A program made the translations under genes and the position numbers. The notes beneath the pieces are model-generated. The model was not told where the DNA came from. It made no database searches and saw only the letters and a program-made list of their open reading frames with translations. A stretch of 57,846 nt of DNA from Acidimicrobiia bacterium (lineage in GTDB: Bacteria; Actinomycetota; Acidimicrobiia; Acidimicrobiales; Poriferisodalaceae). Shown piece after piece: positions 9,113-53,423 of this stretch. The number at the start of each line of letters is the position of its first letter. The stretch's first letter is position 1. Where the stretch lies: positions 1 through 57,846 of the forward strand of contig JAJDTF010000089.1 of NCBI GenBank assembly GCA_022827265.1, read 5' to 3'.

Positions 9113-10345
9113 ATGGCCACCCTTCCCTCCGACGCTCCGACTGACAGCCGCCGACCGGCCTCGAAGCGGCCTGCGTCGCCGCTGCGTGTCGGCTGCCAGG
9201 CCGCAGGCTCGGTGGCCGAGTGGATCCGCGGGCACAACGAGGACGATCTGCCTGCGGTGCGCCAGACACCTGCCGCAGCGTGGAAGTGGATGATCGACGA
9301 GTGGTCGATCCAGCTGGAGCTGGCGTCGGCCCGCATGCGCATCCCCGACGGGCCGTTCCGCCAGCGGCTCCGCTCCGAGCTGGCCGAGGCCCGCAGCCTG
9401 TATGCCGAATGCGGCTGGCTCGACGATCCCGCTGCCTACCACCGCACTCCCCCGCCGCTCGACGGCGACGTGCACGTCAGCGCGACCTCAGCAGGTGACG
9501 CCGACTTCTGGCATGTCCGATTCGCCAGCGAGTTCGAGCCGTGGCCCGGCGAGCCGGGGCGCGACCGCTGGATGAGCTACCGGCCGGTGCGCACCACCCA
9601 TGCGTGGATGCTGCAGCACCCCGACCGGCCCCGTCCCTGGGTGGTTGCCGTCAACGGCTACCGCACGGGTGAGCCCGAGATGGACATGTGGATGCTGTAC
9701 GCGCAACGCCTGCACCGGCGCTGGGGGCTCAATGTGATGGCCGTGGTGCTCCCGCTGCACGGCCCCCGGGCGATCGGCGTCAGCGGCTCGCGGGTCATCC
9801 ACGCAGGCGCCATGAACACGGTGTTCACGGTGGCGCAGGGTGCCTGGGACATCCGCAGGGTGATCGGGTGGGTGCGCGACCAGCAGGAAGCGCCGGCCGT
9901 TGCCGTGTCGGGAATCTCGCTCGGCGGCTACATGGCCGCCATGACCGCAGCACTCGAAGACGACCTGGCTGCGGTCATCGCCGGTGTGCCCGAGAGCGAC
10001 CTCGCGCGCGGCACCCGCCGGCAGGTCGAACCGCTGCTCCCGCCCTTCTACGAGCAGTGGGGGCTGTCGTGGGAGCCCTACGAGCAGATCCTCTCGGTGG
10101 TGTCGCCGCTGTCGCTTCCCTGCAAGGTGCCCCGCGAGCGGCGCTACATCTTCGCCGGGCTGCTCGACCGCTGGGTCCGGCCGGGCAATGTCAAGACCCT
10201 CTGGGAGCACTGGGAGCGCCCCGACATGCTCTGGTACCAGGGCTCGCACCTGTCGTACCCGTTCGAGCGCGAGGTCGCTCGCTATGTCGACCGGGCCGCT
10301 GTCGAGACGTTCGGCCAGCAACCGCCGGCGCCACCAAGAGGCTGA
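9113..10345 (+). CDS. Alpha/beta hydrolase family protein
   Basis: 410 residues. The C-terminal half is an alpha/beta hydrolase: RPWVVAVNGYRTGEPEMD (oxyanion strand), GISLGGYMAA as nucleophile elbow, a likely acidic residue in AGLLDRWVRPGN and a His in QGSHLSYPF. The first 130 residues are helical and not assigned. No signal peptide. It follows the MarR gene by 39 bp on the same strand, so the two may be cotranscribed, and a role in PHA or acyl-ester breakdown is possible but unproven. The TGA stop is supplied by a dispersed repeat element (10338-10417), which suggests the original C-terminus was cut or altered. Confidence 0.75.
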   Translation: MATLPSDAPTDSRRPASKRPASPLRVGCQAAGSVAEWIRGHNEDDLPAVRQTPAAAWKWMIDEWSIQLELASARMRIPDGPFRQRLRSELAEARSLYAECGWLDDPAAYHRTPPPLDGDVHVSATSAGDADFWHVRFASEFEPWPGEPGRDRWMSYRPVRTTHAWMLQHPDRPRPWVVAVNGYRTGEPEMDMWMLYAQRLHRRWGLNVMAVVLPLHGPRAIGVSGSRVIHAGAMNTVFTVAQGAWDIRRVIGWVRDQQEAPAVAVSGISLGGYMAAMTAALEDDLAAVIAGVPESDLARGTRRQVEPLLPPFYEQWGLSWEPYEQILSVVSPLSLPCKVPRERRYIFAGLLDRWVRPGNVKTLWEHWERPDMLWYQGSHLSYPFEREVARYVDRAAVETFGQQPPAPPRG

Positions 10346-10417
10346 GCCCGCTGGCGAAGCCGTGGCCCGAGCGGCCCGTGAGCCCAATCACATGAACATG
10401 GGGAACAAGAGCGGGAA
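10338..10417 (+). repeat. Dispersed repeat, copy A (with internal insertion)
   Basis: Shares GAGGCTGAGCCCGCTGGCGA and the following AGCCGTGGCCCGAGCGGCCC with copies B and C; its 3' part GAACAAGAGCGGGAAA is separated by about 20 bp of unrelated sequence in place of the usual CGGAGC-like block. It gives the hydrolase its stop codon. Confidence 0.85.
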
Positions 10418-10435
10418 ACGACAGGCTGAGGGCCG

Positions 10436-12040
10436 CTACACCCGGTCGGGGTGCCCCAGCACAGCGAGGCGGTGCCGCACGACCTTGCCCGTGGTGGTCA
10501 TGGGCAGGGCATCCACGAAGTGCACGTCGCGCGGCACCATAAAGCTCGGAAGGTTCTCGCCGACCCAAGCGCGGAGCTGGTCGGCATCGACGCGCCGCCG
10601 CGGGCGCGGCACCACAAACGCAGCCACACGCTGACCGAACTCGGGATCGTCCACGCCAACCACCGCTGCGATCTCGACGCTCGGATGACGCCCCAGTACC
10701 TCCTCGACACCGGAGGGGAAGACGTTCTCGCCGCCGGTCACGATCATGTCGTTGGCGCGTCCTGAGATGTGAAGCCGGCCGTCGGCGTCGAGACGGCCGA
10801 TGTCACCGGTGGCCATGAGCGTGCCGGCCCTGTCGCCGTCGCTCCCGTCGGTGTAGCCGAGGAATTGCGCCGTGCTGGCGAGGTGAACCCAGCCGGAGCT
10901 GCCGTTGAGCGCCGGCATGCTGTCATCGTCGAGGATCGTCAGCGTCACGCCGTCGGGAGGGCGGCCCACAGTGCCGGGAGCTGCGCGCAGGTCGACGGGA
11001 TCGGCGATGGTCCCGATGGCGGTCTCGGTGGAGCCGTACACGTTGTACAGGCGGTCTCCGAAGCGGTCCATCCACTGCCGCGCCAAGTCGCCCGACAGGA
11101 CGTTGCCGCTGCTGAGCACCATGCGCGGCCGGCGCTCGGCGTCGGGCTCGATCGGCAGGTCGAGAATGCGGCGCAGCATCAGCGGAACCACCACGAGGGC
11201 GTCGTAACGCCGCTCGCACAGCAGTTGGCCCACCTCGGCCGCGTCAAATTGCCGCCTCATCTCGAGGGTGCTGGCGGTGGCGAGGCCGACGACGAGCTGG
11301 CTCAAGCCCCAGGCGTGAAAGAGCGGCGAGGCGATGAAGTAGCGATCTCCCAGGCGATACGGGACGCGTCGCAGCATGCCGACCCCGCCCACGCGCGTCG
11401 TCTTCAGCGCGCGCACTGCACTCTTCGGCGCTCCGGTGGTGCCCGATGTCAGCAACACGAGCTTGGGCCGGCGCGACGGCGGCGAGCACGGCGAGCCTTC
11501 TGCTGCGACATGAGACAGCGCGTCCGGTCCGTTCCCGTCAGCGACGAGCACCTTGGCCTTCGTGCCCGACTGCGCCACGACCTCGGCAAATTCCTCATCG
11601 GCGACGATCACGGCGATGCCGTCGCGTTCGCACACCTCGGAGAGATTCGACGCCGGCAGCGCCGTAGAGAGCAGCACGGTGTCACAGCCGGCGCGCTCGG
11701 CCGCAACGAGTGCCGTCACGAACCACCGGTGGTTGCGGCAGAGGATGCCCACGGCGCCAAGGCTGCCGTCGGGCTGGGTCGATTCAGCGCGCAGCCGGGC
11801 CGCCACGCTCGATGCACCGCGGTCGAGCGTGCGGTAATCGACCGAACCGGCGTCATCGGTGATCGCGCTGCGACCGCCGAATCGCAGCGCCGCCGCCGTC
11901 ACGGCAGCGGCGGTGCCGAGGCCCCACTGCACCGACGCCCACCAGCGCGCCGAGCCGAGAGCTGCATCGGCAACCCCCATGCGCAAGGCGACGTTCCACA
12001 TGCTGTCGCCAGCGGCGGGGTGGCCATGTAACGGTGTCAC
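10436..12040 (-). CDS. AMP-binding acyl-CoA synthetase / ligase
   Basis: 534-residue ANL-superfamily adenylating enzyme. The P-loop-like motif LLTSGTTGAPK is near residue 195, YGSTET near 315, TGDIGRLDADG near 415, GRANDMIVTGGENVFP near 427, and the catalytic Lys region TTTGKVVRHRL near the end. It should activate a carboxylic acid with ATP to the acyl-AMP and then form acyl-CoA. The substrate is not evident; the neighbouring phasin and XRE genes, 6 bp upstream in one operon, suggest lipid or PHA precursors. The start at 12040 is the first ATG; M14 is an alternative. Confidence 0.88.
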   Translation of the reverse strand: MTPLHGHPAAGDSMWNVALRMGVADAALGSARWWASVQWGLGTAAAVTAAALRFGGRSAITDDAGSVDYRTLDRGASSVAARLRAESTQPDGSLGAVGILCRNHRWFVTALVAAERAGCDTVLLSTALPASNLSEVCERDGIAVIVADEEFAEVVAQSGTKAKVLVADGNGPDALSHVAAEGSPCSPPSRRPKLVLLTSGTTGAPKSAVRALKTTRVGGVGMLRRVPYRLGDRYFIASPLFHAWGLSQLVVGLATASTLEMRRQFDAAEVGQLLCERRYDALVVVPLMLRRILDLPIEPDAERRPRMVLSSGNVLSGDLARQWMDRFGDRLYNVYGSTETAIGTIADPVDLRAAPGTVGRPPDGVTLTILDDDSMPALNGSSGWVHLASTAQFLGYTDGSDGDRAGTLMATGDIGRLDADGRLHISGRANDMIVTGGENVFPSGVEEVLGRHPSVEIAAVVGVDDPEFGQRVAAFVVPRPRRRVDADQLRAWVGENLPSFMVPRDVHFVDALPMTTTGKVVRHRLAVLGHPDRV

Positions 12041-12046
12041 GGTGCC

Positions 12047-12478
12047 TCAGGATTCGGCGGCGCCGAAGCTGCGGTACACCCCCAGCAGCGCTGCCTTCTG
12101 CTCGTCGGTGAGGTTCGGATCAGCCTGCACCGCCTCCACCACCGTGGGCACGTCATCGCGGTCCATCAGGCCGGCATACGACAGCAGCGTGGCAGCGCGC
12201 ACGTTCAGCGCTTCGGCCAGCGCCTTCAGCACGCGCACAGACGGCTCGTGCAAGCCACGCTCGATCTGGCTGAGGTACGGGTTCGACAGGCGAGCCATCT
12301 TGGCCAGCTGCCGCTGACTCAACTCCATCAGCTCGCGCTGAGCCCGGATGAAGTCGCCGAGCTGGTCAAAGCCCGGAAACGGGCTCGACGCAGCTCGGTG
12401 ACCTGTGCCTGTGCTGCCGGCGTCGTCGTCGGGAGCGCCGGCCGCCGGATCAGCGGCAGAGGAGCCGCCGCCGGCCAT
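12047..12478 (-). CDS. XRE-family regulator linked to a phasin gene
   Basis: 143 residues. A Gly/Ala/Asp-rich N-terminus of about 35 residues is followed by a classic XRE helix-turn-helix at 40-95 (LSQRQLAKMARLSNPYLSQI). A C-terminal helix ends in QKAALLGVYRSFG. It resembles the regulators next to HBHA/TadA-type lipid-granule proteins in mycobacteria and rhodococci. Its ATG overlaps the TGA of the phasin gene (TGATG), so the two are translationally coupled. It probably senses or controls granule formation; the target may be the inverted repeat upstream of the phasin. Confidence 0.85.
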   Translation of the reverse strand: MAGGGSSAADPAAGAPDDDAGSTGTGHRAASSPFPGFDQLGDFIRAQRELMELSQRQLAKMARLSNPYLSQIERGLHEPSVRVLKALAEALNVRAATLLSYAGLMDRDDVPTVVEAVQADPNLTDEQKAALLGVYRSFGAAES

Positions 12479-12756
12479 CAGGCCTGAGCGTCCTCGCTGG
12501 CCCGCTCCCACGCAGCAGCGATGCGAGAGGCGCAGTCCTTGTTGGCCTCGTGAAGCCGGCCCAGGAAGCTGAAGTAGGTGTCGATCATCTCGGTGGGCTT
12601 GGGCAGGTATTCCGCGAACGGACTCGACATCGCCGGCACGGCCGACAGCCACGCCTCGGCGACGCGCTCGTTCATCGAGACGAACTGCTCTTGGGCAGTC
12701 TTCATCTGCTCGAGGGTGCGATCCTGCATGTCGCGGACGGAATCAAGAACGGCCAT
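12478..12756 (-). CDS. Phasin-like granule-associated protein
   Basis: 92 residues, almost wholly amphipathic helix, no Cys clusters or signal peptide. It begins MAVLDSVRDMQDRTLEQMK and contains a Pro break (MSSPFAEYLPKPTE) between two helices, as in small phasins/HBHA-like proteins that coat PHA or lipid granules. A single Cys is present late. GGAG is 8 nt before the ATG. A recognisable promoter sits 60-90 bp upstream. Operon order is phasin, XRE regulator, acyl-CoA synthetase. Function is inferred from composition and context. Confidence 0.72.
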   Translation of the reverse strand: MAVLDSVRDMQDRTLEQMKTAQEQFVSMNERVAEAWLSAVPAMSSPFAEYLPKPTEMIDTYFSFLGRLHEANKDCASRIAAAWERASEDAQA

Positions 12757-12816
12757 GGGGCTTGCTCCGGTTCGTAAGGGGGAAGCGCCGGAGGGGGGTC
12801 ACCGGCGCTGTTAGAA

Positions 12817-12857
12817 ATAGTACCCACTGCGGGAACAACTTGCAACCTCAAGTGTTC
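12817..12857 (-). promoter_or_regulatory. Promoter and inverted repeat upstream of the phasin gene
   Basis: On the minus strand -35 TTGCAA (12840-12845), 17-bp spacer, -10 TACTAT (12817-12822); predicted start near 12810. The -35 lies within an inverted repeat at 12833-12857, GAACAACTTG / CAAGTGTTC, with one bulged base. This places a likely operator across the -35 region. Confidence 0.55.
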
Positions 12858-12935
12858 GCCTCATTCTGGCAGCCCGCCCTGCACGCGATAACCGCTGGAT
12901 CGTGCTCGTGGCCTGCGCCTACGCTTAGGGTCGTG

Positions 12936-13421
12936 ATGAGTGCTGGATTGCTTCCGATTTCCGAGGATCTGGCCGAGCGACTGCGCGCCGAGGGTCGATC
13001 CAGTGGCCAAGAGCCTGCTGCACTGGCGGCGTCGTTGCTCGACGAGGGCCTCAAGGTGCGTCGGCATCCCGGCATCGTCTACATGGACGGCACTGCTGGC
13101 AGGCGCGCGTGTCTGTCGGGCGGCCCCGATGTCTGGCAGATCATTCGTGCGCTTCGAACGGTTCCGGCGAGTGAGTTCGATCCTGTGACGACCGTATGCA
13201 TCGAGTCCGACCTGCATGCGCAGCAGGTCAAGCTTGCAGTGCAGTTCTACGAGTCGTACCCGGACGAGATCGATGAGATGATCGCCAAGGACGCCGCCGC
13301 CGTCGGACTCATCGAAAAGATGATCGCCGAACGCGAGAGCACTGCTGCGCTAACGCAGTCAGAGAGACCGAGACCCACCCGAGCCAGGTCGCGAGGCAGC
13401 CGCTCCGCCCCAAGCCTCTGA
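12936..13421 (+). CDS. VapB45-like antitoxin
   Basis: 161 residues. An N-terminal helical DNA-binding-like segment (LPISEDLAERLRAEG, then LAASLLDEG) precedes RRHPGIVYMDGTAGRRA and GGPDVWQIIRALR, the region I associate with the VapB45/DUF433-type antitoxins paired with DUF5615 toxins. The C-terminal 25 residues are Arg/Ser/Pro-rich. It ends 10 bp before a PIN-like toxin gene on the same strand. The start at 12936 (ATG) is preferred over the upstream frame, which is unrelated in composition. Confidence 0.75.
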   Translation: MSAGLLPISEDLAERLRAEGRSSGQEPAALAASLLDEGLKVRRHPGIVYMDGTAGRRACLSGGPDVWQIIRALRTVPASEFDPVTTVCIESDLHAQQVKLAVQFYESYPDEIDEMIAKDAAAVGLIEKMIAERESTAALTQSERPRPTRARSRGSRSAPSL

Positions 13422-13431
13422 TCCGACGACC

Positions 13432-13785
13432 ATGCGGTGGCTTCTTGACGAGATGCTTCCGCACGCGGCAGCAGAGATATTGAGTCGCCTCGGTCACGAT
13501 GCAACCAGCGTGTCCGCCATGGGGTTCCGTCAGGCTCCGGACTCGGTCGTGTACCAACTGGCGCTCGCGGAGAATCGCATACTTGTGACAGAGGACCGCG
13601 GCGGCTTCGTGCCGATCGCGAAAGCGGACCTCGAAGCCGGGCGACCTGCGGTACCGATCGTCATCGTCCATCGCGATGAATTCGGGCGACATGGCGCGCT
13701 GCCCCATCACTTGGCCGACGCACTCAACCGCTGGTCGCAACAGGTCTCCACACCATGGCCCGGCCCGCACTACCTGTCGGCATGA
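13432..13785 (+). CDS. PIN-like ribonuclease toxin (DUF5615, VapC45-like)
   Basis: 117 residues. The N-terminal strand MRWLLDEMLP holds the first acidic pair (Asp6, Glu7), followed by SRLGHDATSV, QLALAENRILVTEDRGGF with the second acidic site, and the strand VPIVIVHRD. This is the compact PIN-like fold of DUF5615 proteins, predicted metal-dependent RNases. Partnered with the antitoxin gene 10 bp upstream. Targets are unknown. Confidence 0.8.
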   Translation: MRWLLDEMLPHAAAEILSRLGHDATSVSAMGFRQAPDSVVYQLALAENRILVTEDRGGFVPIAKADLEAGRPAVPIVIVHRDEFGRHGALPHHLADALNRWSQQVSTPWPGPHYLSA

Positions 13786-13882
13786 GAGGCACCTGGGCGC
13801 GCGATATCTGGCCACGGTGTCGGCCGAGGCATGAGCGGCGCCTCCCCGAGCGAAGGCCCGAGTGACCTGACAAGATTCGGGC

Positions 13883-14734
13883 ATGCCGTCGCTCAGCTAC
13901 CTCGCCGTGCTGCTGTTGGCATTCCTTGGAGTTGACCACAGCGATACCCACGACGACCTCGGTGACCCGTGCCCCACCAGTCAGGTGAGCGATTACGGAG
14001 ACGGATATACCGGTGATTGGTACGCATGGGAACGTTGCTTGCTCGGCGATCGCCGCGGCGACGTACCCGAGTGGCGGCTGGCCCGCACCGACATACACAC
14101 TCTGGCGGCCGAAATATGGGCCGAGTACGAGCCGTGGGTTAGGCAGGCGCTCACTCGCAGCGGCAGCGGCTGGGAAACCAACGAGCAGCGACCTTGGTGG
14201 CGTCAGGTAACCCGCGTTGACCTTGAGCCGCTTCGGGTCCATATCGGTGCTCAAGCGATAGCCGATCACTGTCCAGGCAATCGCGGGTGCGCTGCGCCCT
14301 ACACGGCCAGTGGCTGCACGATTCCGTGCCAAGCGCCATTTCCCTCCGAGGACACCGGCCACGCCGTATGGCATTGGGCCGACGGCGGCAGTGTCAGCTA
14401 CGACTTGCGTGCGTCCTACATTGCGGTGGAGGAGAACGGCGTCACGATCGCGGATCGAAACCTATTTCTGTTGCTACACGAAATCGCTCATGCCATCGCG
14501 AGCCGCCAGTGGTATGGGCCGTCCCTCTACGACGACACCGGTCCCTCGGCGGCGGTACAACGAGGCACCAGCGGCCATGGGCATGGCTTCCGATGTCTCC
14601 TACTGGACTTGTACCACCGTCACGGCCGAGGCGCCGTTCCCGACGATGTGTACCGACCGCTCAATGATGTCTGCATGGCCCTTGTGCCCGACTATCCCCG
14701 CCCGATCACCGCGCCGCTACCGCCCAACAGATGA
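13883..14734 (+). CDS. Predicted secreted zincin metallopeptidase
   Basis: 283 residues. A short hydrophobic N-terminus (SYLAVLLLAFLGV) could be a signal peptide. The middle holds several Cys residues (CPTS, ERCL, DHCPGNRGC, GCTIPC), likely disulfides outside the cell. The zinc motif HEIAH lies at 199-203 within LLLHEIAHAIASRQW, and about 30 residues later GHGHGFRCLLLDLY supplies probable third-ligand His residues, a layout seen in small HExxH peptidases with a distal GHG-x-x-F. I do not recognise a named family. It converges with the propeller protein gene, 54 bp away. Confidence 0.6.
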   Translation: MPSLSYLAVLLLAFLGVDHSDTHDDLGDPCPTSQVSDYGDGYTGDWYAWERCLLGDRRGDVPEWRLARTDIHTLAAEIWAEYEPWVRQALTRSGSGWETNEQRPWWRQVTRVDLEPLRVHIGAQAIADHCPGNRGCAAPYTASGCTIPCQAPFPSEDTGHAVWHWADGGSVSYDLRASYIAVEENGVTIADRNLFLLLHEIAHAIASRQWYGPSLYDDTGPSAAVQRGTSGHGHGFRCLLLDLYHRHGRGAVPDDVYRPLNDVCMALVPDYPRPITAPLPPNR

Positions 14735-14788
14735 GAGCGATGCTTGGGGTCAGCTCCGCAGACTGCGCCAATACACGCGCAGGCAGCA

Positions 14789-17171: not shown

Positions 17172-18371
17172 TCACGGCTGCGGCGAGTCTCGCAGGGCAG
17201 CGAGCCCGGGCAGATCGCCGTGCTCGACGAGCTCGAGGCCCGCCCCTCCCCCGGTCGAGATGTGATCCATGTAGGGCGCCAGCCCGAACTGGGCCACGGC
17301 GGCAGCGCTGTCTCCGCCGCCGACCACGGTGAACGCGCGGGAGTCCGCCATCGACTGGGCCACTGCGCGGGTTCCCGCGGCGAATCGCTCGTCTTCGAAC
17401 AGGCCCATCGGGCCGTTCCAGAACACCGTTCGGGCTCCTGCAATCACATCGTCGAACTCTGCCGCTGAGCCGGGGCCGATGTCGAGGCCCCGGCATCCGT
17501 CGGGCAGGCTGCGGCCCATCTGACGTACCGTCCCGCCGGCATCGAGGGCAGTGATGTCGTTGGGCAGGACGATTCTGGCGCCGCCCCCCAGCAGGCGTTC
17601 GCAGGTCTCGATGAAGTCGGGCTCGCACAGCGAGTCGCCGATCGGGTGACCCAATGCGGCCAGGAAGGTGAAGCACATGCCGCCGCCGATGACCAGCGTG
17701 TCGACGACGTCCAGCAGCGCTTCGACCACGCCGAACTTGTCGCTCACCTTGGCGCCGCCGAGCACCGCCACAAACGGCCGCTTGGCGTCGGCGCGCAGGC
17801 CGCCGAGCACATCGGCTTCCCGCTGCAGCAGTCGGCCCGCTGCGCTCGGCAGGCGCTGCGGCGGCCCCACGATGGAGGCGTGCGCCCGATGGCTCGCCCC
17901 GAAGGCGTCGTTCACGTAGCCGTCGAACGCAGCCGAGACCGAAGCCGAACCTGAGCCCGCTGGCGAACCGCCGAATGGGACTGGGAGGCTGCCGGAGACG
18001 AGCGCCTCCACGAAGGCCGGATCGTTGGCGGTCTCTCCCGGGCTGAAGCGGAGGTTCTCGGCCAGCGCGACGCCGGGGACCAGCTCCGCAAGACGTTCCG
18101 CCGCAGGGGCCAGCGAGTAATGCTCATCTGGGACGCCCGACGGCCGGCCCAGGTGCGAGCAGGCCGTGACGGAAGCTCCGCGCTCAGTCAGCCAGCGCAA
18201 GGTCGGCAATGCCGCCCGGATGCGCAAGTCGTCGGCGATCTCTTGCCGACCGTCCTCGCCGACACGCAGCGGAACGTTGAAGTCGCACCGAACCAGGATG
18301 CGCCGGCCGTCGAGACCACCGAGCCGCAGCTCGAGGTCTTCCAGCGCCGGCAGGCTGCCGGCGTCGCTCAT
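17172..18371 (-). CDS. pgk: Phosphoglycerate kinase with a ~22-residue insertion
   Basis: 399 residues. Converts 1,3-bisphosphoglycerate and ADP to 3-phosphoglycerate and ATP. Signature RCDFNVPL is at 28-35, the substrate Arg region SHLGRP at 72, LGGAKVSDKF and NGPMGLFE in the middle, and the nucleotide loop VVGGGDSAAAV near 345. Between FVEAL (about 124) and YVNDAFGASHRAHAS (152) there are about 22 extra residues rich in Gly, Ser, Pro and Ala; most bacterial enzymes have only a few residues here. The DNA of this insert contains CTGAGCCCGCTGGCGAA (17951-17967), matching the dispersed repeat. The ATG overlaps the gap stop (ATGA). Confidence 0.95.
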   Translation of the reverse strand: MSDAGSLPALEDLELRLGGLDGRRILVRCDFNVPLRVGEDGRQEIADDLRIRAALPTLRWLTERGASVTACSHLGRPSGVPDEHYSLAPAAERLAELVPGVALAENLRFSPGETANDPAFVEALVSGSLPVPFGGSPAGSGSASVSAAFDGYVNDAFGASHRAHASIVGPPQRLPSAAGRLLQREADVLGGLRADAKRPFVAVLGGAKVSDKFGVVEALLDVVDTLVIGGGMCFTFLAALGHPIGDSLCEPDFIETCERLLGGGARIVLPNDITALDAGGTVRQMGRSLPDGCRGLDIGPGSAAEFDDVIAGARTVFWNGPMGLFEDERFAAGTRAVAQSMADSRAFTVVGGGDSAAAVAQFGLAPYMDHISTGGGAGLELVEHGDLPGLAALRDSPQP

Positions 18372-37275: not shown

Positions 37276-40080
37276 TCAGCCCTTGGCGTCTGCCCAGGTG
37301 GCGCCGGCAGCGACATGGACTTCCAGCGGCACCGCCAGGTCGGCGGCATTGCGCATCACGTCGACCGTCAGATCGGTCACCTCGGCGGATTCAGCGGGAT
37401 CCACTTCGAGGATCACCTCGTCGTGAACCTGCAGCACCAGCCGGCTGGCTGCGGACCCTGCCTGCAGGGCCTCGTCCAGCCGGATGAGCGCCACCTTGAA
37501 GATGTCCGCCGCGAGTCCCTGGATGGGGGCATTCATGGCCTGCCGCTCGGCGGCCTGACGCACCCGGAAATTGCGCGACGTCAACTCGGGGAGCGGCCGG
37601 CGCCGGCCGAAGGCTGTCTCGGTGTAGCCACGCTCGCGGCTCTGCTCCACCACCCCGTCCATGAACGAGCGCACCTTGGGAAACGCCTCGAAATAGGCGT
37701 CCAGGATCTCCGCCGCCTCGCCGGTGGGCACACCGAGACGCTGGCCGAGGCCATATGCCTCCATCCCGTAGGCCAAGCCGTAGCTGACCATCTTGGCCAC
37801 TGACCGCTGCTGCGAGTCGACCTCGGTGGGGCTGATGCCGAACAGGGATGCCGCAGTTGCGCTGTGGATGTCATGGCCCGCTTCGAAAGCACCCACGAGG
37901 CCCGGATCGCCGGACAGGTGGGCGATCACGCGCAGCTCGATCTGGTTGTAGTCGGCAATCAGCAGCTCGCAGCCGTCGGCCGGAATGAACGCACGCCGGA
38001 ACAGCCGGCCCTGTTCGGTCCGCACGGGGATGTTGTGCAGGTTCGGGTCCTCGGAGCTGAGCCTGCCGGTGCGTGCCACCGTCTGGTTGAACGTGGCATG
38101 GATGCGGCCGTCGGGTTCGACGCATTCGAGCAGGCTGACGCCATAGGTGGAACGCAGCTTCTCCACTTCCCGGAACGCCAGCAGCCGGTCCACAATGCGG
38201 TGCTCGCCCCGCAGCGACTCCAGCGCCGCTGCGCTCGTGGAGTAGCCGGTCTTGGTCTTGCGCTGGGGCGTCAGCCCCAGATCCTCGAAGAGCACCTCGG
38301 CGAGCTGCTTGGGCGAGTTGACGTTGAGGTCGTCGCGGCCGGCCAGCTCGCGCACCTCGGCTTCCAGCGCGAGCACCTCTCCCGTGAGATGGTCACGCAA
38401 CGATTCGAGCTCGCCGCGGTCGACGCCGATGCCGGCCGTTTCCATGCGAGCCAGCACGCTGATGAGCGGACGCTCCACATCCCGGTACAGGTCGGACATG
38501 CCCAGGCTCTCGAGCTGCTGATCGAGCATCGGCGCCAGCATCGCCACCGCGAGGGCGTCACGAGCGGCCACGATGCCGTCGGCGGGTCCATCGGCGTCGA
38601 GGTCGTCGAAGCCCAGCTGGCCCTCGGTGCCGCCTCCGGCAAGCTCCGTCCCGCAATGCCGAACGAGGAGCGCGCTCAGCTCGTCGCGGCCTTCCGACGG
38701 ATGGATGAGATAGGCGGCGATCGAAGTGTCGACGGCCAGCCCGGCGAGCGCCGCTCCGGCATCCAGATCGCCCTGTGCTTCCCGCTCTTGTTCGCTCCGC
38801 TCACGGGCCGCTCGGGCCACGGCTTCGCCTGCGGGCTCAGCCTCTCGGCGGGCGAGCGCGCGCATGAGCTCCTTCGCCTGGTGGACGTGGACGCCCGGGC
38901 CCTCAGCCCCCAGCAGGCGGGCGCACGGTGCTGCGATGTCGGGCACAGCGAGATCATGGAGGCCGAGCGCGAGCACCGTGCCCTGCGAGGGATCGTCCGC
39001 GACCGCCAGCACGCCCAAGGCGCCGTCGGCCTCCACGGTGAACCCGAGCGCGACCGGTTCGTCCCGGCGCGACAACTCGCCCAGCAGCCGTGCGGCATGG
39101 GCCCCACGGGCACCCCCCTCCCCGTCGACCTGCAGCAGCTGCACGTCGGCGAGCTGTGCAGTCTCGGGAGAACTCGCGCTCGGACTCAGCATGCCGTCCA
39201 ACGAGGTCCCCGCCAAGGCGTCGCTCAGACGGGCGTGCAGAGTGCCGAACTCCAGGAACTCGAACGTGCGCGCCACGAGATCGGCGTCGAACCCGCTCCA
39301 CCGCAGATCAGCGGGCGTGGCGTCGATCGGCGCGTCGGTCCGCAGGGTCATCAAGTCGACGTTGCGCCGCACGACCTCGCCGTGGGCCGCAAGATTCTCG
39401 GCCAGTTTCGGAGTCTGTTCGGCGGCTGCAGCCAGCAGCGCCTCGACACTGCCGTATTTGTTGAGGAGCTTGGCAGCCGTCTTCTCCCCCACGCCGGGCA
39501 CTCCTGGCAGGTTGTCGGACGGGTCGCCGCGAAGCGCGGCGTATTGCACGTACAGGTCCGGCGTGACGCCGGTGCGCTCGGTGATGCCGGCTTCGTCGTA
39601 GAGCGCATAGTCGGTGACCCCCCGGCGGTTGTAGAGCACCTGGATCTTGGGGTCATGCACGAGTTGGTATACGTCGCGATCGCCACTGACGATCAGCACG
39701 TCGTCGCCGCGCTGTTCCGCCTCGGACGCCAGCGTCGCCAGCAGGTCGTCGGCCTCGAAGCCGGCGCTGTCGATCGCCGGGATGCTCAGCGATTCGAGCA
39801 CCTGACGCACGAGGCCGAGCTGATCGATGAGCGTTGGCGGCGTCTCGTCGCGGTGAGCCTTGTATTCGGGTGCAGCGATGTGGCGGAACGTCGGCTCCCG
39901 CCGATCGAAGCACACCGCGATCGCGTCAGGGCGGTGGTCGCGCACCAAGTTGATGAGCATGGACGTGAACCCGAAAACGGCGCCTGTGGGCTGTCCCGAG
40001 CGGGTGGCCATGTCTTCGGGCACCGCAAAGAAGGCCCGGTACGTGAGCGAATTCCCGTCGAGCAAAAGGAGCTTCGACAT
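37276..40080 (-). CDS. polA: DNA polymerase I with a repeat element inserted in frame
   Basis: 934 residues. The N-terminal 5'-nuclease (MSKLLLLDGNSLTYRAFF; SGDRDVYQL; GVPGVGEKTAAKLL), a degenerate 3'-5' exonuclease-like domain (about 300-530) and the polymerase domain with DYNQIELRV, RSVAKMVSYGLAYG and LQVHDEVILEV. It fills repair gaps and removes primers. At residues about 413-434 the peptide EAEPAGEAVARAARERSEQE appears; this is the translated dispersed repeat (copy B), lying in the inactive exonuclease-like domain. GGGAGAG precedes the ATG by 5 nt. The pdtaR gene lies immediately upstream. Confidence 0.95.
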   Translation of the reverse strand: MSKLLLLDGNSLTYRAFFAVPEDMATRSGQPTGAVFGFTSMLINLVRDHRPDAIAVCFDRREPTFRHIAAPEYKAHRDETPPTLIDQLGLVRQVLESLSIPAIDSAGFEADDLLATLASEAEQRGDDVLIVSGDRDVYQLVHDPKIQVLYNRRGVTDYALYDEAGITERTGVTPDLYVQYAALRGDPSDNLPGVPGVGEKTAAKLLNKYGSVEALLAAAAEQTPKLAENLAAHGEVVRRNVDLMTLRTDAPIDATPADLRWSGFDADLVARTFEFLEFGTLHARLSDALAGTSLDGMLSPSASSPETAQLADVQLLQVDGEGGARGAHAARLLGELSRRDEPVALGFTVEADGALGVLAVADDPSQGTVLALGLHDLAVPDIAAPCARLLGAEGPGVHVHQAKELMRALARREAEPAGEAVARAARERSEQEREAQGDLDAGAALAGLAVDTSIAAYLIHPSEGRDELSALLVRHCGTELAGGGTEGQLGFDDLDADGPADGIVAARDALAVAMLAPMLDQQLESLGMSDLYRDVERPLISVLARMETAGIGVDRGELESLRDHLTGEVLALEAEVRELAGRDDLNVNSPKQLAEVLFEDLGLTPQRKTKTGYSTSAAALESLRGEHRIVDRLLAFREVEKLRSTYGVSLLECVEPDGRIHATFNQTVARTGRLSSEDPNLHNIPVRTEQGRLFRRAFIPADGCELLIADYNQIELRVIAHLSGDPGLVGAFEAGHDIHSATAASLFGISPTEVDSQQRSVAKMVSYGLAYGMEAYGLGQRLGVPTGEAAEILDAYFEAFPKVRSFMDGVVEQSRERGYTETAFGRRRPLPELTSRNFRVRQAAERQAMNAPIQGLAADIFKVALIRLDEALQAGSAASRLVLQVHDEVILEVDPAESAEVTDLTVDVMRNAADLAVPLEVHVAAGATWADAKG
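38779..38844 (-). repeat. Dispersed repeat, copy B, in frame inside polA
   Basis: 66 bp on the minus strand, nearly identical to copy C and to the conserved parts of copy A: GAGGCTGAGCCCGC, GGCGAAGCCGTGGCCCGAGC, GGCCCGTGAGCGGAGCGAAC, AAGAGCGGGAA. Length is a multiple of three and the polA frame stays open through it. Confidence 0.9.
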
Positions 40081-41032: not shown

Positions 41033-41055
41033 CTTGGGGCGCTTCAGCGTATCCC

Positions 41056-41096
41056 GGTGCCCGAGCGGCCCGTGAGCGGAGCGAACAAGAGCGGGG
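41056..41096 (+). repeat. Dispersed repeat, copy D (3' part only)
   Basis: CCCGAGCGGCCCGTGAGCGG followed by AGCGAACAAGAGCGGGG, identical to the second half of copy B. It lies between tRNA-Leu(CAA) and fabD; the first half is missing. Confidence 0.8.
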
Positions 41097-45696: not shown

Positions 45697-45710
45697 GGCC
45701 GTGAACAGCC

Positions 45711-48305: not shown

Positions 48306-50704
48306 CCCAGGAACTCGGTGAGCACCTCGAAGTTGTCTTCGCCGAGGCACGGTCCGCCTCGCCAGACCACCGGTGGCGTTCGGGACATGCGCGTCCGGCA
48401 GTGCTGCGTCCACATCGTGCCACGGTGGCCCTGGGGCACGTTGATGTGGTGTTCGCGGGCGGTCAGCTGCGCGTCGTCACAACAGCCCTGTGCATTGTTG
48501 ACCGGGTAAGCGTCGATGCCGCTGGACTGCAACGACTCCGCGGCCTCCACATTGGTGCGCTCCGATGTCCACGCCGAGATGGCCTCATCGATCTCGCCCG
48601 ACCGTTCCCGCCTAGTGGCTTGATCCCAGCCGGTCGCGCCGTCGGCGTCGAGCCCCACCGCACCGGCCAAGGCCGGCCAACGGTCGTCTGTGCAGGCAAT
48701 CGCCACCCACTGGTCGTCGCCTTCGGTCGGGTACACGCCGTGGGGACTCATGTGCGGGTCCTCGTTGCCGGACCGCTGCGGATCCCGGCCGTTGATCGAG
48801 GCGTCCAGGATGGCCGGCGCCAGGTAATGCAGCGCCGCCTCGGTCTGGGAGATGTCGATGTAGCAGCCGGTGCCGGTGCGATCGCGTCGTTCGAGTGCCG
48901 CCATCAGCGATGCCACGATCACCCGCGGCGCCAGGAAGTCGGTGTACGGGCCGTACGGGCCCGCGGGGCCGCGGTCGGGCCAGCCGGTGATCTCATAGAA
49001 GCCGGCGATCGCCGCCGCCATGAACCCGTAGCCGGCCAGGCTCGAGTACGGACCGCTCTGGCCCAGCAGTGAGCTCGACAGCATGATGATCTGCGGGTTG
49101 ATCGCCGAGAAATCCTCGTAGCCGAAGCCCATACGCGCCGCCGCCCCCGGCGCCCACGATTCGGTGGTGATGTCGGCCCACCGGATCAGGTCCTCCACCA
49201 CCGGGCGAGATTCGGGGTTGCTGAGATCCAAGCTCAGGCTGCGCTTGCCGGCGTTGTACACCCCGTAGCCGACGCTGTTGTCAGGGTGCGGATCCTCGTC
49301 CACGAAGGGGTTGACCGTGCGCATCGTGTCGGGCCGGCTCTCGGTCTCGACCTTGACGACGGTGGCGCCGTAGTCGGCCAGGATCCGCACCGCCGACGGC
49401 GTGGCGATCACCCACGAGAACTCCACCACCTTCAGGCCGGCCAGCGGCAGCTCGCTGCCATCTGAAACTGGGCCGCCAGCGGCAACCGTCGCCGCCGCAT
49501 GGGGTTGCCGGTTGGAGTCGACCGCGTCGTTGTCGGCGCCGAGCTGGGGTACGACTGGCAGGCGCTCGGGAGCGTCGTGGCTGAAGTGCACGAGTGGGCC
49601 GCAGTAACGAGCCGTGCGGCCAGCATCGAACTCAATGTCACGCCAGAACCCGCGGTCCGCAAAATGCGGGTTGGTCAGCAGGTCGCTGACCAGGGCCGAC
49701 GGCGTGATGAGCAGGTTCCGGTCGAACGCCGCTGCCCACAGTTCCTCGGCGGTCTTGGTGGCGAGAAAGCGGGCATGGGTCGCGAACGACTTGGCGATGA
49801 TCTCGGGTGAGCGCTGACCGCCCAGCACCTCGGCCGCGACGGTCTCCCAATTGACCGCCTGGAGTTCCTCGTCAGCGAACCCCTCTTCCGCCTCCCACTC
49901 CACCAACCGCTGCGTAAACGGCGCGAATGCGGCACCCATGAGCGCGACGCAGATGGTGTTGCCATCGGCGCAGGGGAACATCATCGGGATGTCGATACCG
50001 CCGAGGCTGAGCCCACCTGCGAGGCGTTCCACGGCGTTGGCATTGACCCTCGGCGACAGGTTCTGCGGCTGGCCGTGCGTCATCGACTCCATGGCAGAAA
50101 TGTCGATGTGCTGGCCTCGGCCGCTGCGCTGCGCCTCACGCAGCGCGACGAGCGTCGCTGCAGCGGCGTCGCCGGCAGCCTGCAGGAAGCTCTGTGGCAC
50201 ACCTGAGACCCGCACGGGAGCGCGGTCCTTGTCGCCGCTGGCATGCAGAAAGCCGCTGCCGGCCACCGCGGTCAGGTCGGAGCCGGCCCAGGTGCTGCGG
50301 GGACCGGTCGAGCCGAACGGCGTCACCGATGCGTGGACGATGGCGGGATTGACGGCCGCCAGATCGTCGTAGGCGAGTCCCAGCGACGCCATGTGGCCGA
50401 CCGGCGCGTCCTCGATGAGTGCGTCTGCGCCTGCGACGAGGCCGAGCAGGCGCTCGCGGCCCTCAGCAGTCGACAGGTCTGCGGTGACGCTCTGCTTGCC
50501 CCGGTTATAGGCCCAGTGAGCCAGCGAACGCTCCGGGTCTGGTTCGTCGTCGACAAAGGGACCGCTGTGGCGGCTCTGCACCCCTTCAGGTGGTTCGACG
50601 CAGATCACCTCCGCGCCCAGGCTGGCGAGCATGTAGCCCGCGAATTGGCTGATGCCCCCGCAGAGATCCAAGACCCGGTAGTGCTGCAACATCTCGAATG
50701 TCAC
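48254..50704 (-). CDS. Tandem (double) family III CoA-transferase, CaiB/BaiF type
   Basis: 816 residues, about twice the usual 400. Both halves carry the family N-terminal pattern (YRVLDLCGGISQFAGYMLASLGA at the start, split here; LKVVEFSWVIATPSAVRILADYGA near 425) and a candidate catalytic Asp: AAGDAAAA in the first half, PYTDFLAPR in the second. Such enzymes move CoA between acids or activate bile-acid-like or carnitine-like substrates. The first gene of this strand here, divergent from the PPOX gene. Natural fused versions exist; substrate unknown. Confidence 0.88.
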   Translation of the reverse strand: MTFEMLQHYRVLDLCGGISQFAGYMLASLGAEVICVEPPEGVQSRHSGPFVDDEPDPERSLAHWAYNRGKQSVTADLSTAEGRERLLGLVAGADALIEDAPVGHMASLGLAYDDLAAVNPAIVHASVTPFGSTGPRSTWAGSDLTAVAGSGFLHASGDKDRAPVRVSGVPQSFLQAAGDAAAATLVALREAQRSGRGQHIDISAMESMTHGQPQNLSPRVNANAVERLAGGLSLGGIDIPMMFPCADGNTICVALMGAAFAPFTQRLVEWEAEEGFADEELQAVNWETVAAEVLGGQRSPEIIAKSFATHARFLATKTAEELWAAAFDRNLLITPSALVSDLLTNPHFADRGFWRDIEFDAGRTARYCGPLVHFSHDAPERLPVVPQLGADNDAVDSNRQPHAAATVAAGGPVSDGSELPLAGLKVVEFSWVIATPSAVRILADYGATVVKVETESRPDTMRTVNPFVDEDPHPDNSVGYGVYNAGKRSLSLDLSNPESRPVVEDLIRWADITTESWAPGAAARMGFGYEDFSAINPQIIMLSSSLLGQSGPYSSLAGYGFMAAAIAGFYEITGWPDRGPAGPYGPYTDFLAPRVIVASLMAALERRDRTGTGCYIDISQTEAALHYLAPAILDASINGRDPQRSGNEDPHMSPHGVYPTEGDDQWVAIACTDDRWPALAGAVGLDADGATGWDQATRRERSGEIDEAISAWTSERTNVEAAESLQSSGIDAYPVNNAQGCCDDAQLTAREHHINVPQGHRGTMWTQHCRTRMSRTPPVVWRGGPCLGEDNFEVLTEFLGYDADRVAELAAAEVLG

Positions 50705-50861
50705 CCCTCATATGTGCCGGCTCGACGCACGGCGTGGGGCTGATTCTTCCCTGTACGCGCCGGTCATGTGAACCAACGGGCCGGGAGCGGCTTCCGCAGT
50801 GCCGAACGGCAGAAGATCGGCGAGACTGCCCGAGCTGTTGGGCCGAGCCAGGGAGTACCAG

Positions 50862-51329
50862 ATGGTGTCGATAGCGACTGACCGGATTGTGGAATGCGAC
50901 GAGCTGCAGGAGTTCGTGCGGGAACGGCATCACGGCGTGCTGCTGACGCTCCGGCGGGACGGTCGCCCGCAGGCATCGCTAGTCACCATGGGTCTCGACG
51001 AGGCCGGCGATGCGGTGCTCGTCAGCAGTTACCCCGACCGGGCCAAGTCGCTCAACCTCCGGCGCAACCCCCAAGCGTGGGTCGTCGTGATGTCCGATGC
51101 GTGGAACGGCGAGTGGGTGCAGCTCGAGTGCCGCGGCGAGGTCGAGGACCTGCCCGAGGCCATGGACGGCCTCGTGGAGTACTTCCGGGTGATCAGCGGC
51201 GAGCATTCCGACTGGGACGAGTACCGCGAAGCCATGGCCCGCCAAGACAAGGTGCTGCTGCGCCTGCACATCGAGAGCTGGGGGCCGATCTCCAAAGGCG
51301 GCTTCCCCGCCCGTCTCGCGGGCGACTAG
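50862..51329 (+). CDS. PPOX/F420-type pyridoxamine-phosphate-oxidase-like protein
   Basis: 155 residues with the split-barrel pattern HHGVLLTLRRDGRPQASLV, VLVSSYPDRAKSLNLRRNP and VQLECRGEVEDL, typical of the small PPOX-class proteins of actinobacteria that bind FMN or F420. No catalytic function can be assigned. AGGGAG lies 6 nt before the ATG at 50862; the longer frame is not conserved. Its stop overlaps the enoyl-CoA hydratase stop. Confidence 0.87.
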   Translation: MVSIATDRIVECDELQEFVRERHHGVLLTLRRDGRPQASLVTMGLDEAGDAVLVSSYPDRAKSLNLRRNPQAWVVVMSDAWNGEWVQLECRGEVEDLPEAMDGLVEYFRVISGEHSDWDEYREAMARQDKVLLRLHIESWGPISKGGFPARLAGD

Positions 51330-52114
51330 CGGCCTTGCCAGTCGGGAGTGCGGCGTTCGAGGAAGGCGCTCGCTCCTTCGGCGTGGTCGGCGGTGGTCTT
51401 GAGGACGCTCTGGCCGAGACGCTCGAGGCGCCGGCCGGTCTCGTGGTCCACATCGGTGCAGGTGTTGAGGACGGTCTTGGCCATGCCCAGCGCGAGCGGC
51501 GCGAAGGCCGACATCTCTGCCGCGAGCTCCAGGGCCGCGTCCACGGCGCCGCCCTCGGGCGCCACTTCGGTGGCGAGGCCCATCGCCTTGGCGTCGTCTG
51601 CGCCGACGTTGCGCGACAGCATCACGAGTTCCTTGGCACGCCCCAGCCCGACGTAATGCACCAGCCGCGAGCAGCCGCCCGAGCCGGGAATGAGCCCCAC
51701 CTTGGCCTCGGGCATCACGAAGCGGGCGTTCTCAGCAACCACCCGGAAGTCGCACGACAGCGCCAGCTCGAAGCCGCCGCCCGCGGCCACCCCGTTCACT
51801 GCGGCAATGACCGGCACTTCCAGCGCCTCGATCAGATCGAACACTGAGTGGATGCCGCGGGCCACTGCACGGAATCCCCGGGTCCCCATCTCGGTCAGAT
51901 CGCCCATCTCGGAGACGTCTTCGCCTGCAGAGAACGCCCGACCCGCACCGGTGATGATGAGCGCCCTGATGCCGGTGGCCATTGCCGTGTCCTCGACGGC
52001 GTCGCGCATCTCGGCCCGCATGGCGGCGTTCCAGGAGTTGAACTTCTGCGGCCGGTTCAGCGTCAGGACGCGGACACCGTCGCGGTCTTCGCTCAGCAGG
52101 TGCTCATAGCTCAT
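51326..52114 (-). CDS. Enoyl-CoA hydratase/isomerase family protein
   Basis: 262 residues. Crotonase motifs are present: GAGRAFSAGEDVSEMG with the oxyanion Gly, NGVAAGGGFELALSCDFR, and PEAKVGLIPGSGGCSRL. The usual second Glu is at the position of PGSGG, where a Gly replaces it, so the chemistry may be isomerase rather than hydratase. AGGGAG precedes the ATG by 5 nt. Last gene of a run beginning at 54218. Confidence 0.9.
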   Translation of the reverse strand: MSYEHLLSEDRDGVRVLTLNRPQKFNSWNAAMRAEMRDAVEDTAMATGIRALIITGAGRAFSAGEDVSEMGDLTEMGTRGFRAVARGIHSVFDLIEALEVPVIAAVNGVAAGGGFELALSCDFRVVAENARFVMPEAKVGLIPGSGGCSRLVHYVGLGRAKELVMLSRNVGADDAKAMGLATEVAPEGGAVDAALELAAEMSAFAPLALGMAKTVLNTCTDVDHETGRRLERLGQSVLKTTADHAEGASAFLERRTPDWQGR

Positions 52115-52163
52115 GGGTTCTCCCTCGTCGTCAGGATTGCTCGGGCGGGGTTGCCCGTGCTGG

Positions 52164-52556
52164 TCACTCGTCGGGGTCGCCGCGCATCACCACGATGCCG
52201 GTGGCGACCACGTCGCCCCGCTGGTTGCGCAGCTCCACGCCCCGATCCAGTTCGCCGAAGCTCACCGGCGACACCGTCACCTCGTCGCCGGGAAAGATCG
52301 GCCCCCGCAGGCGGACGTCGAGGTTCAGGATCGCGTCGGCGCCGAACCGTGCGATGAGCGCATCGAGTGCGAGAGCGGTCGTGTGCGAAGCCTGCACCAC
52401 CACATCGGGCAGCCCCGCTGTGGCCGCGAACTCCGGGTCGGTGTGCACCGGGTTGGGGTCGCTCACGCCGTCGACGAAGCTGCGCATGGCTTCGGGCGTG
52501 ACGGCAGGCGCGGTCACCGGCGACAGGTCCAGCTCGCTCATGCGCTGGTCGCTCAT
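52164..52556 (-). CDS. MaoC-like hotdog dehydratase subunit
   Basis: 130 residues. The hydratase-2 motif is visible as VSDPNPVHTDPEFAATAGLP (Asp and His of the catalytic pair). It overlaps the partner gene by 4 bp (ATGA), so the two likely form a heterodimeric enoyl-CoA hydratase such as HadAB/ChsH1-2 types. Substrate unknown. Confidence 0.88.
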   Translation of the reverse strand: MSDQRMSELDLSPVTAPAVTPEAMRSFVDGVSDPNPVHTDPEFAATAGLPDVVVQASHTTALALDALIARFGADAILNLDVRLRGPIFPGDEVTVSPVSFGELDRGVELRNQRGDVVATGIVVMRGDPDE

Positions 52557-53002
52557 GATGCTGACTCCCCCGCCGCGCTGCCGTCATCTGCGGCGGCGTC
52601 CTGCGTCTGTTCGTCGGCCGGCTTGCGCTCCACGAACACCGTCCGCTGCCGCTGAATCAGCTCGCCGTCTGCGTCCCGGTATTCCGACAGCACCGTGGCC
52701 AGATGCAGCGTCCCCTTGTCGATGATGTCCTCCACCGACACCACCACCGACACCCGCTCGCCCGGGCGGAACGAACGGTGCCATTCGAACGACTGGCCGC
52801 CGGCGAGACCCCGTTCGAGGCTGAGATCGATGAGCCCGACCACCGAGTCGCCGCCGCCCACCGTCGGCCCGAAGAACGGCAGCCGCAGCGCCACTTCCTC
52901 CGCGTGAGGCGTGCCCAGCGCATCGACGAGCAGCGCCACCGAGTCGGGTTCCACCACCACCTCGGTCTCCACCAGCACTTGGCCCAGTGTCTCCAGGTTC
53001 AC
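52553..53002 (-). CDS. FAS1-like dehydratase, N-terminal hotdog partner
   Basis: 149 residues. A hotdog fold lacking the catalytic Asp-His pair (FFGPTVGGGDSVVGLIDLS, WHRSFRPGERVSVVVSVEDI), the usual scaffold half of two-subunit MaoC hydratases. A Ala/Asp-rich tail of about 20 residues follows. Its stop overlaps the start of the catalytic subunit. Confidence 0.86.
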   Translation of the reverse strand: MNLETLGQVLVETEVVVEPDSVALLVDALGTPHAEEVALRLPFFGPTVGGGDSVVGLIDLSLERGLAGGQSFEWHRSFRPGERVSVVVSVEDIIDKGTLHLATVLSEYRDADGELIQRQRTVFVERKPADEQTQDAAADDGSAAGESAS

Positions 53003-53052
53003 CTCGACACCTCGCTACACACCATCTCGCCCGACGCTCTCATCCGACATGC

Positions 53053-53346
53053 TCAGTTCGAGCTCAGCAGCTGCCAGACCGCCACGAGCAGGTCCTCGTC
53101 GTCACCGGCCGTAGGCGGATCAGATGCCGGCCGCATGTCCCAGCCATAGGGCTTGTTGATGACATGGATGCGCGGCTCCGGTGTCGAGCGGTCGCCCCGG
53201 TCGAACGCACCCACCACGAGCGTGTGCTCGCCTTCGGCCACCCAGAAGCACTCCCAGTGCGCCGACGACGATGTCTCGATGAAGGCCACCTCAGGCGCTG
53301 GCCGCGTCACCTTGACGGCAAGCCCGCCCGCAGCTGCGGGGTCCAT
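53053..53346 (-). CDS. Hypothetical 97-residue protein
   Basis: A small protein rich in Pro, Asp and Trp with strands IETSSSAHWECFWVAEG and HTLVVGAFDRG. I do not recognise it. It lies 50 bp upstream of the hotdog pair in the same direction, next to repeat copy C, so it may belong to the operon. Confidence 0.5.
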   Translation of the reverse strand: MDPAAAGGLAVKVTRPAPEVAFIETSSSAHWECFWVAEGEHTLVVGAFDRGDRSTPEPRIHVINKPYGWDMRPASDPPTAGDDEDLLVAVWQLLSSN

Positions 53347-53356
53347 AGCCGGCTAA

Positions 53357-53423
53357 GAGGCTGAGCCGAACGGCGAAGCCGTGGCCCGAGCGGCCCGTGA
53401 GCGCAGCGAACAAGAGCGGGAAA
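53357..53423 (+). repeat. Dispersed repeat, copy C (intergenic)
   Basis: GAGGCTGAGCC, then GGCGAAGCCGTGGCCCGAGC, GGCCCGTGAGCGCAGCGAAC, AAGAGCGGGAAA; one internal CCGCTGGCGA-type block is CGAACGGCGA. Almost full length. Lies between the 97-residue gene and the diiron gene. Confidence 0.88.

What the first reader, a model, noticed from the sequence alone, without database searches (positions are those of the whole stretch)
10338..53423. Dispersed ~66-bp repeat that inserts in frame in polA and supplies a stop codon elsewhere
Seen: copies at 10338-10417, 38779-38844 (polA, in frame), 41056-41096 (half), 53357-53423, and a 17-bp match in pgk (17951-17967). In polA it adds about 22 residues in the inactive exonuclease-like domain; at 10338 it gives the hydrolase its TGA. 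This recalls the protein-invading palindromic elements of Rickettsia, but this element is not clearly palindromic, so it may be a distinct class.
Basis: seen in the sequence. Interest (0 to 1): 0.7.

Follow-up and report, generated by a model that had tools for sequence, protein, structure and literature searches.

The report
Mobile hairpin repeat invading bacterial genes
A short, strongly folded repeat has spread to more than a hundred places in this actinobacterium and is abundant in its sister species; it lies mostly between genes but sometimes inside enzymes, where every copy seen reads in the sense direction and adds a short extra peptide while leaving the reading frame intact.

Summary
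The repeat is real and genome-wide. The window is one contig of a 3.80 Mb Acidimicrobiia-type metagenome-assembled genome holding at least 145 copies at 127 loci. All 10 other same-genus genomes searched carry it. The unit is a ~67-bp core of two hairpins plus a ~45-bp weaker tail; net inserts at clean full-length sites are 113-116 bp, with no constant target duplication.

It is mobile: of 39 copies testable in sister genomes, 28 sit where a sister lacks the element and is at least 50 bp shorter.

The polA copy is a 69-bp (23-residue) in-frame insertion, present in this genome and G007, absent in 9 congeners. A 38-residue insertion in an XdhC-family gene is absent from G007.

All 28 in-gene copies found (about 23 insertions) are sense, 20 of 23 in one frame, although antisense frames are mostly open.

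It works like Rickettsia palindromic elements and intragenic REPs, but 0 of 11 genus genomes gave a Y1/RAYT transposase. New variant of a known kind. In one distant genome the same hairpin is a mini-ORF/ribosome-binding leader.

The parts
10337..10425 (+). Element copy: core 10337-10417 with a 14-nt longer apex, then a truncated tail; 8-bp repeat AGGCTGAG at 10339-10346 and 10423-10430
   Evidence: absent in G010, short footprint AAGAGGCTGAG in G008
10343..10345 (+). TGA of the element, used as stop codon of the upstream ORF
9212..10345 (+). ORF that ends in the element (weak alpha/beta-hydrolase-like Pfam hits, below cut-off)
38779..38845 (-). Element core inserted in frame in polA (net +69 bp / 23 residues; peptide REAEPAGEAVARAARERSEQERE)
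37276..40080 (-). polA, 934 aa (5'-3' exonuclease and family A polymerase domains); insertion between them
41054..41095 (+). Partial copy (second hairpin only) beside a tRNA gene; also in G007 and G008, not in G010
53356..53467 (+). Full-length copy between two genes (AGAGG...CCTCT; net difference 113 bp to G008); absent in G008 and G010
53359..53380 (+). Hairpin A: GGCT-GA-GCC-nnnn-GGC-GA-AGCC with tandem G.A
53385..53420 (+). Hairpin B: CCCG/CGGG base, apical GTGAGC-GNA-GCGAAC (53397-53411)
53423..53467 (+). Less conserved tail, part of the inserted DNA

Best explanation
A short non-autonomous mobile repeat (about 114 bp; two-hairpin core plus tail) that spreads around the genome using an enzyme encoded elsewhere and not identified. 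Insertions survive mostly in intergenic DNA. Inside a gene they survive in the sense direction and mainly in one frame, whose peptide (EAEPxGEAVARAARERSEQERE...) is charged and stop-free, so a linker or terminus tolerates it. At gene ends another frame stops at once (TGA), so the element just ends the protein. Shown: copy number, insertion polymorphism, in-frame alleles, orientation and frame bias, hairpin support. Inferred: mobilisation in trans, and that the bias comes from selection on the inserted peptide after insertion rather than from directed insertion.
For: Genome-wide: at least 145 copies at 127 loci. All 10 other same-genus genomes searched carry it; 20 of 61 genomes in all.
Polymorphism: 33 of 39 G000 copies testable against position-fetched stretches of G007/G008/G010 have no element in at least one; 28 of 39 also differ in length by 50 bp or more.
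In-frame alleles: polA present in G000 and G007, absent in 9 congeners; XdhC 358 versus 320 aa.
Orientation: inside genes 8 of 8 (G000) and 20 of 20 (relatives) sense. Of 89 intergenic loci with both neighbours within 500 bp, 28 lie sense and 24 antisense between tandem genes, 29 between divergent and 8 between convergent genes. Over the 112-bp unit the three antisense frames are open in 35, 34 and 29 of 43 full-core copies, the sense frames in 36 (EAEP), 22 (RLSR) and 1 (TGA frame). So stop codons do not explain the lack of antisense copies.
Carriers are ordinary enzymes: polA, XdhC, Lhr, amidase, AMP-binding enzyme, ABC transporter, anthranilate synthase, hydantoinase.
Folding.
Against: No mobilising enzyme found: Y1/RAYT gave nothing in 11 of 11 genus genomes; IS110 gave nothing in G003, G006, G008, G009 and G010, all of which carry the element. 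Terminal inverted repeats (AGAGGC/GYYTCT) are visible in some copies but barely exceed chance over 174 (mean best match 4.40 versus 4.28 shuffled). No constant target duplication. The core changes less than the tail in shared copies (21/339 versus 51/252 mismatches in 7 of the 13 rows; the 6 rows without an element in the relative were dropped), which plain decay would not predict and which hints at gene conversion or a function. Three antisense copies (1, 2) overlap predicted 5' starts of genes; my gene finder's start calls there are uncertain. Intergenic copies are over-represented between divergent genes (29 of 89, against 76 of 461 gene pairs in the fetched regions), which I do not explain.
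Confidence: 0.82

Rival explanations
1. A functional dispersed RNA/translation element (leader or RNA hairpin) kept by selection, not a selfish repeat: the hairpin with its open frame and Shine-Dalgarno-like GGAG couples translation of neighbouring genes.
For: In G041, 12 copies with a real core lie before a start codon by my placement rule, 10 of 12 with the start 42 nt from the first base of GGCCCGAGCGG. My gene finder, which does not know the element, puts the start at the same base in 9 of 12 and in the same frame in 2 more; L377 is not supported. The core is a mini-ORF whose TGA overlaps the next start, and CAGGAG (CTGGAG in L369, CAGGAGTGG in L372) sits before it. 21 pattern matches versus 0 in the backward control (that pattern includes the start, so it is not independent). 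Core more conserved than tail.
Against: In the window's genus, copies lie at variable distance and on either strand of neighbours, and most tested sites are empty in a sister. In G041 the downstream genes share no obvious pathway (KdpA, TPP enzyme, ALAD, carboxymuconolactone decarboxylase family, PP2C, homoserine dehydrogenase, a TGS-domain class II tRNA synthetase and others; 10 of 12 scanned).
Confidence: 0.15
2. A REP/BIME moved by a RAYT (Y1 tyrosine transposase).
For: Hairpin pair, high copy number, dimers at 57-bp spacing, stop-codon donation, intragenic copies, as in published REPs (PMC3733652).
Against: No PF01797 match at E<=1e-5 in 11 of 11 genus genomes, while 5 of 14 control genomes ring. 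No GTAG or CGTC tag at an end of the consensus.
Confidence: 0.05
3. Differential loss of an old element rather than recent insertion.
For: Two sites keep a footprint of the element's first 11-15 bases in a sister (10338 site in G008; L171 67054 in G010), as expected from deletion between short repeats. Some tested copies are shared with sisters (9 filled pairs of 48).
Against: Clean empty alleles with intact flanks (e.g. L191, L186, L190, L179); polA is empty in 9 of 11 genus genomes, and the XdhC copy is missing even in G007, which shares the polA copy.
Confidence: 0.07

Closest known systems
Rickettsia palindromic elements (RPE / protein-invading palindromic elements)
   Same: ~105-150 bp, dispersed, intergenic and in-frame in conserved enzymes; stop-free frame encoding a conserved peptide (PMC10969869 and PMC2229807, passages read; the original 2002 paper was not held)
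   Different: GC-rich core with no Rfam family; Acidimicrobiia instead of Rickettsiales; two short hairpins rather than one long one; 8 of 145 copies in this genome (and 20 of 136 in relatives' loci) lie inside genes, versus nearly half of RPEs in the review
GTAG- and CGTC-tagged REPs, intragenic
   Same: Short hairpins in high copy; GTAG REPs often provide TAG stops to flanking ORFs; some inside ORFs including DNA polymerase I, more than half of them dimers or groups encoding 20 to 30 residues; CGTC type lacks a known transposase (PMC3733652, section 15 and passages read)
   Different: No GTAG or CGTC tag; longer unit with tail; no RAYT found; few between convergent genes (8 of 89), where published REPs are frequent
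ERIC and Correia/NEMIS (bacterial MITEs with ORFs)
   Same: Small non-autonomous repeats fused in frame to genes (PMC2229807, passages read)
   Different: Those are tabulated with terminal inverted repeats and target duplications; here both are weak or absent

Membership tests
RPE/PPE | Dispersed repeat inserted in frame in conserved protein genes, with empty orthologues | tested here: met
   polA and XdhC
RPE/PPE | Palindromic unit | tested here: inconclusive
   Two imperfect hairpins, but no single palindrome over the unit
RPE/PPE | Sequence homology to described RPE families | not tested
   RPE sequences not in hand
REP (GTAG/CGTC) with RAYT | Conserved GTAG or CGTC tag at one end | tested here: not met
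   Consensus of 174 copies
REP (GTAG/CGTC) with RAYT | Y1 transposase (PF01797) in the genome | tested here: not met
   0 of 11 genus genomes; 2 of 41 genomes in all
MITE | Short, without a transposase gene, polymorphic between sisters | tested here: met
MITE | Terminal inverted repeats | tested here: inconclusive
   Seen in single copies (L331, L364), near chance over 174 copies
MITE | Constant target-site duplication | tested here: not met
   Junctions vary; none shared by the clean sites read
Known structured RNA family | Match to an Rfam model | tested here: not met
   Window at gathering scores: two tRNAs only; five loci at E<=5: six weak hits, none on the element

The most novel reading that the evidence does not exclude
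The hairpin is a 'ribosome-proof' mobile module. One short sequence is tolerated wherever it lands because its three sense frames do three jobs: two are usually open through the core (one strongly preferred in genes), the third stops at once. In another family of the order it has settled as a mini-ORF and ribosome-binding cassette whose end overlaps the start codon of the next gene, even in a tandem array. The same element would then be selfish DNA, a peptide insert and a translational coupler.
Probability: 0.3. Interest if true: 0.78.

Novelty: new variant of a known kind. Interest (0 to 1): 0.58.

Why it matters
It shows, in a high-GC actinobacterial lineage, the same solution that made Rickettsia palindromic elements known: DNA that enters enzymes without breaking the reading frame. 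Closely related genomes with and without the insert make the cost of such insertions measurable. The lack of antisense in-gene copies, although antisense frames are mostly open, points to selection on the inserted peptide. The missing mobilising enzyme and the leader role in a distant genome are open questions that can be tested directly.

Tried and rejected
Y1/RAYT driver: not found. IS110 driver: patchy, not found in five element-carrying genus genomes; other transposase families were not searched. Autonomous partner: searched for tails without a core in the held loci only; 111 tail hits, 2 without a full-model hit nearby, one of them an internally deleted copy, the other (E=0.24) not examined. 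Viral, phage or plasmid carriage: no match (exact pattern; blastn). Replication-strand bias: 10 of 12 copies on one strand of a 671-kb G010 contig, a lead only. Rfam: nothing. pgk match: not an element. AlphaFold model of polA with 10 sequences: mean pLDDT 67; the insert lies in a segment below 50 (414-443), so it shows only that nothing fixed is predicted there. Alignment A1 mixed strands and was discarded. PMC2635572 was opened for passages and not used.

One search left out L322-L338 by mistake; one search is the full count. Two N-terminal in-gene cases (L128, L332) depend on start calls, and L215 is a weak ORF. Of the carrier genes, those in L323, L324 (second site), L329, L332, L334 and L338 were not scanned with Pfam; L165 and L313 gave no family. 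The 39 copies include three pairs that share a locus.
Full report
What is there. The window is contig C132 of a 3,797,146-bp, 163-contig genome, 93% complete. The consensus of 174 copies (pattern-fetched copies included) is AGAGGCTGAGCCGnnaGGCGAAGCCGTGGCCCGAGCGGCCCGTGAGCGcAGCGAACAAGAGCGGGAaa followed by a weaker tail, about RCAAYGGGTGACGC..CGRGAAGGTTCGCCAATCCGCGCAC.

How many and where. A sequence-only model gives 146 matches in the window's genome, with 150 of 4567 first-look candidates scored, so the number is a lower bound. 145 are distinct, at 127 loci. With my own codon-bias gene finder, 120 are intergenic, 16 overlap the 3' end of a same-strand gene, 8 are inside genes, and 1 overlaps a 5' start on the opposite strand. 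In loci of relatives, 136 copies remain of 141 raw hits (1 weak and 4 duplicates dropped): 104 intergenic, 20 inside, 10 at same-strand 3' ends, 2 at 5' starts on the opposite strand. Of the 16 3'-end genes in this genome, 9 end RG*, GG* or KG* on the TGA in GGCTGA and 3 end RLSR* on a TAG in the variable loop; 4 end otherwise.

It moves. Of 39 copies whose flanks could be placed in position-fetched stretches of G007, G008 or G010, 33 lack the element in at least one; by genome, 28 of 32 in G010, 11 of 14 in G008, 0 of 2 in G007. Some empty calls have equal lengths on both sides and may be diverged sequence; 28 of 39 also show a length difference of at least 50 bp. Net insert lengths at clean full-length sites are 113-116 bp; other copies are truncated or have longer apices. 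No target duplication is shared by the sites. Two sister sites keep a stub of the element's first 11-15 bases, as deletion between short repeats would leave.

In genes. polA: the window's genome and G007 have 934 codons; the nine other congeners lack the 69-bp insert, including G008 and G009 at 95% identity. The insert lies between the 5'-3' exonuclease and polymerase domains, in a stretch of the model with no confidence. XdhC-family gene at C136:1730: 358 aa against 320 aa in G007, a 38-residue insertion carrying the whole element. Other carriers, by Pfam: Lhr helicase, amidase, AMP-binding enzyme, ABC transporter between its two domains, anthranilate synthase N-terminal part, hydantoinase A/B linker, UDG N-terminus, and C-termini of methylmalonyl-CoA mutase, a molybdopterin enzyme, a 4Fe-4S protein, a glycosyltransferase, UppP and a Trm112-like ORF.

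Orientation and frame. The 28 in-gene copies (8; 12; 8) reduce to about 23 insertions after merging orthologues (polA, amidase, glycosyltransferase) and one tandem pair. All are sense; 20 of 23 read EAEP..., 3 read RLSR.... Over the 112-bp unit of 43 full-core copies, antisense frames are open in 35, 34 and 29, sense frames in 36 (EAEP), 22 (RLSR) and 1 (TGA frame). With 3 of 5 usable frames antisense, no antisense in 23 has odds of 7e-10; with strands equal, 1.2e-7. The frame preference is softer: 2.4e-4 if the two sense frames were equal, about 0.01 by hand if the 36:22 share of open frames is allowed for. Tandem intergenic copies show no strand preference (28 sense, 24 antisense). So the bias most likely arises after insertion, by selection on the encoded peptide; that is inference. 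In the core, 14 of 21 codons outside the loop have a third position that varies in 3% of copies or fewer, although third positions vary more on average (0.066 against 0.028 and 0.037), and changes are not biased to synonymous ones (211 synonymous, 529 not). This suggests that the core is held at the nucleic-acid level; the sample includes pattern-fetched copies, so it is soft.

Structure. Hairpin A is GGCT-GA-GCC-nnnn-GGC-GA-AGCC. Other genera keep the stem with changed pairs: GGCC/GGCC in G017, GGGC/GCCC in G043. Hairpin B has a CCCG/CGGG base and an apical stem closed by a GNA loop. On 46 distinct 37-nt copies (46 of 76 extracted, chosen by length), the structure shows 21 cells changed on both sides against 4.4 in shuffles, and a covariation score of 0.176 against 0.067; all both-sided changes are in the apical stem. 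Its two middle pairs are G.A in most genus copies, so they count as unpaired there. On the genus alone, RNAalifold found no pair with both sides changed. The apical motif resembles the very stable GCGNAGC DNA mini-hairpin; that comparison is recalled, not from a call.

Another family. In G041, 12 of 15 model hits hold a real core; three weak hits do not. My placement rule finds a start codon just after all 12, at 42 nt from the first base of GGCCCGAGCGG in 10 (43 and 66 in the others). The gene finder agrees on the base in 9, on the frame in 2 more (L360, L372), and not for L377, whose ORF has 31 codons. The core is a mini-ORF ending in a TGA that overlaps that start, with a GGAG as plausible ribosome-binding site. 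Downstream genes share no obvious pathway (10 of 12 scanned). One site holds a tandem array with a 65-bp period. No other member of that family is held, so insertion versus ancient leader cannot be decided.

Known or new. In-frame mobile repeats are known in Rickettsia and other bacteria (PMC10969869 and PMC2229807, passages read). REPs that donate stop codons and sit inside ORFs, DNA polymerase I included, are published (PMC3733652, section 15 read). My searches for such an element in Acidimicrobiia or Actinobacteria (search listings only, at most 15 rows each) showed no description of it; only open-licence PMC papers were searched. Hence: new variant of a known kind.

Noticed in passing
L341, L348, L355, L360, L367, L369-L372, L375-L377 (G041): The same hairpin core forms a mini-ORF before start codons, overlapping them, with a GGAG ribosome-binding site, at 42-nt spacing in 10 of 12.
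   Followed up: partly
L390:1380-1680 (G041:C1): Tandem array of the unit with a 65-bp period, units joined at GTGA.
   Followed up: no
L289:3793-3972: Two tandem in-frame copies 114 bp (38 codons) apart at the C-terminus of a UppP/BacA gene.
   Followed up: no
L185 versus L256; L138 versus L293; L176 versus L246: At the same locus sister species carry different hairpin variants (long versus short apex, full versus short hairpin A) with a matching tail in the first two pairs, as gene conversion between copies would give.
   Followed up: no
intergenic copies of G000: 29 of 89 lie between divergent genes, against 76 of 461 gene pairs in the fetched regions.
   Followed up: no
window 3434-3558: Five 25-bp tandem repeats starting at the end of an ORF (GCCGTAAGGCGAGCAGTAGGCCCGT).
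   Followed up: no
window 54394-54528, 56651-56785, 57704-57838: Three copies of a 135-nt repeat (62% and 90% identity to the first); relation to the element not tested.
   Followed up: no
G010:C27: 10 of 12 element copies lie on one strand of a contig with mostly positive GC skew; possible link to replication direction.
   Followed up: partly
L101:3690-3760: Internally deleted copy: first 13 bases of the element joined to its tail, ending CTTCCTCT.
   Followed up: no
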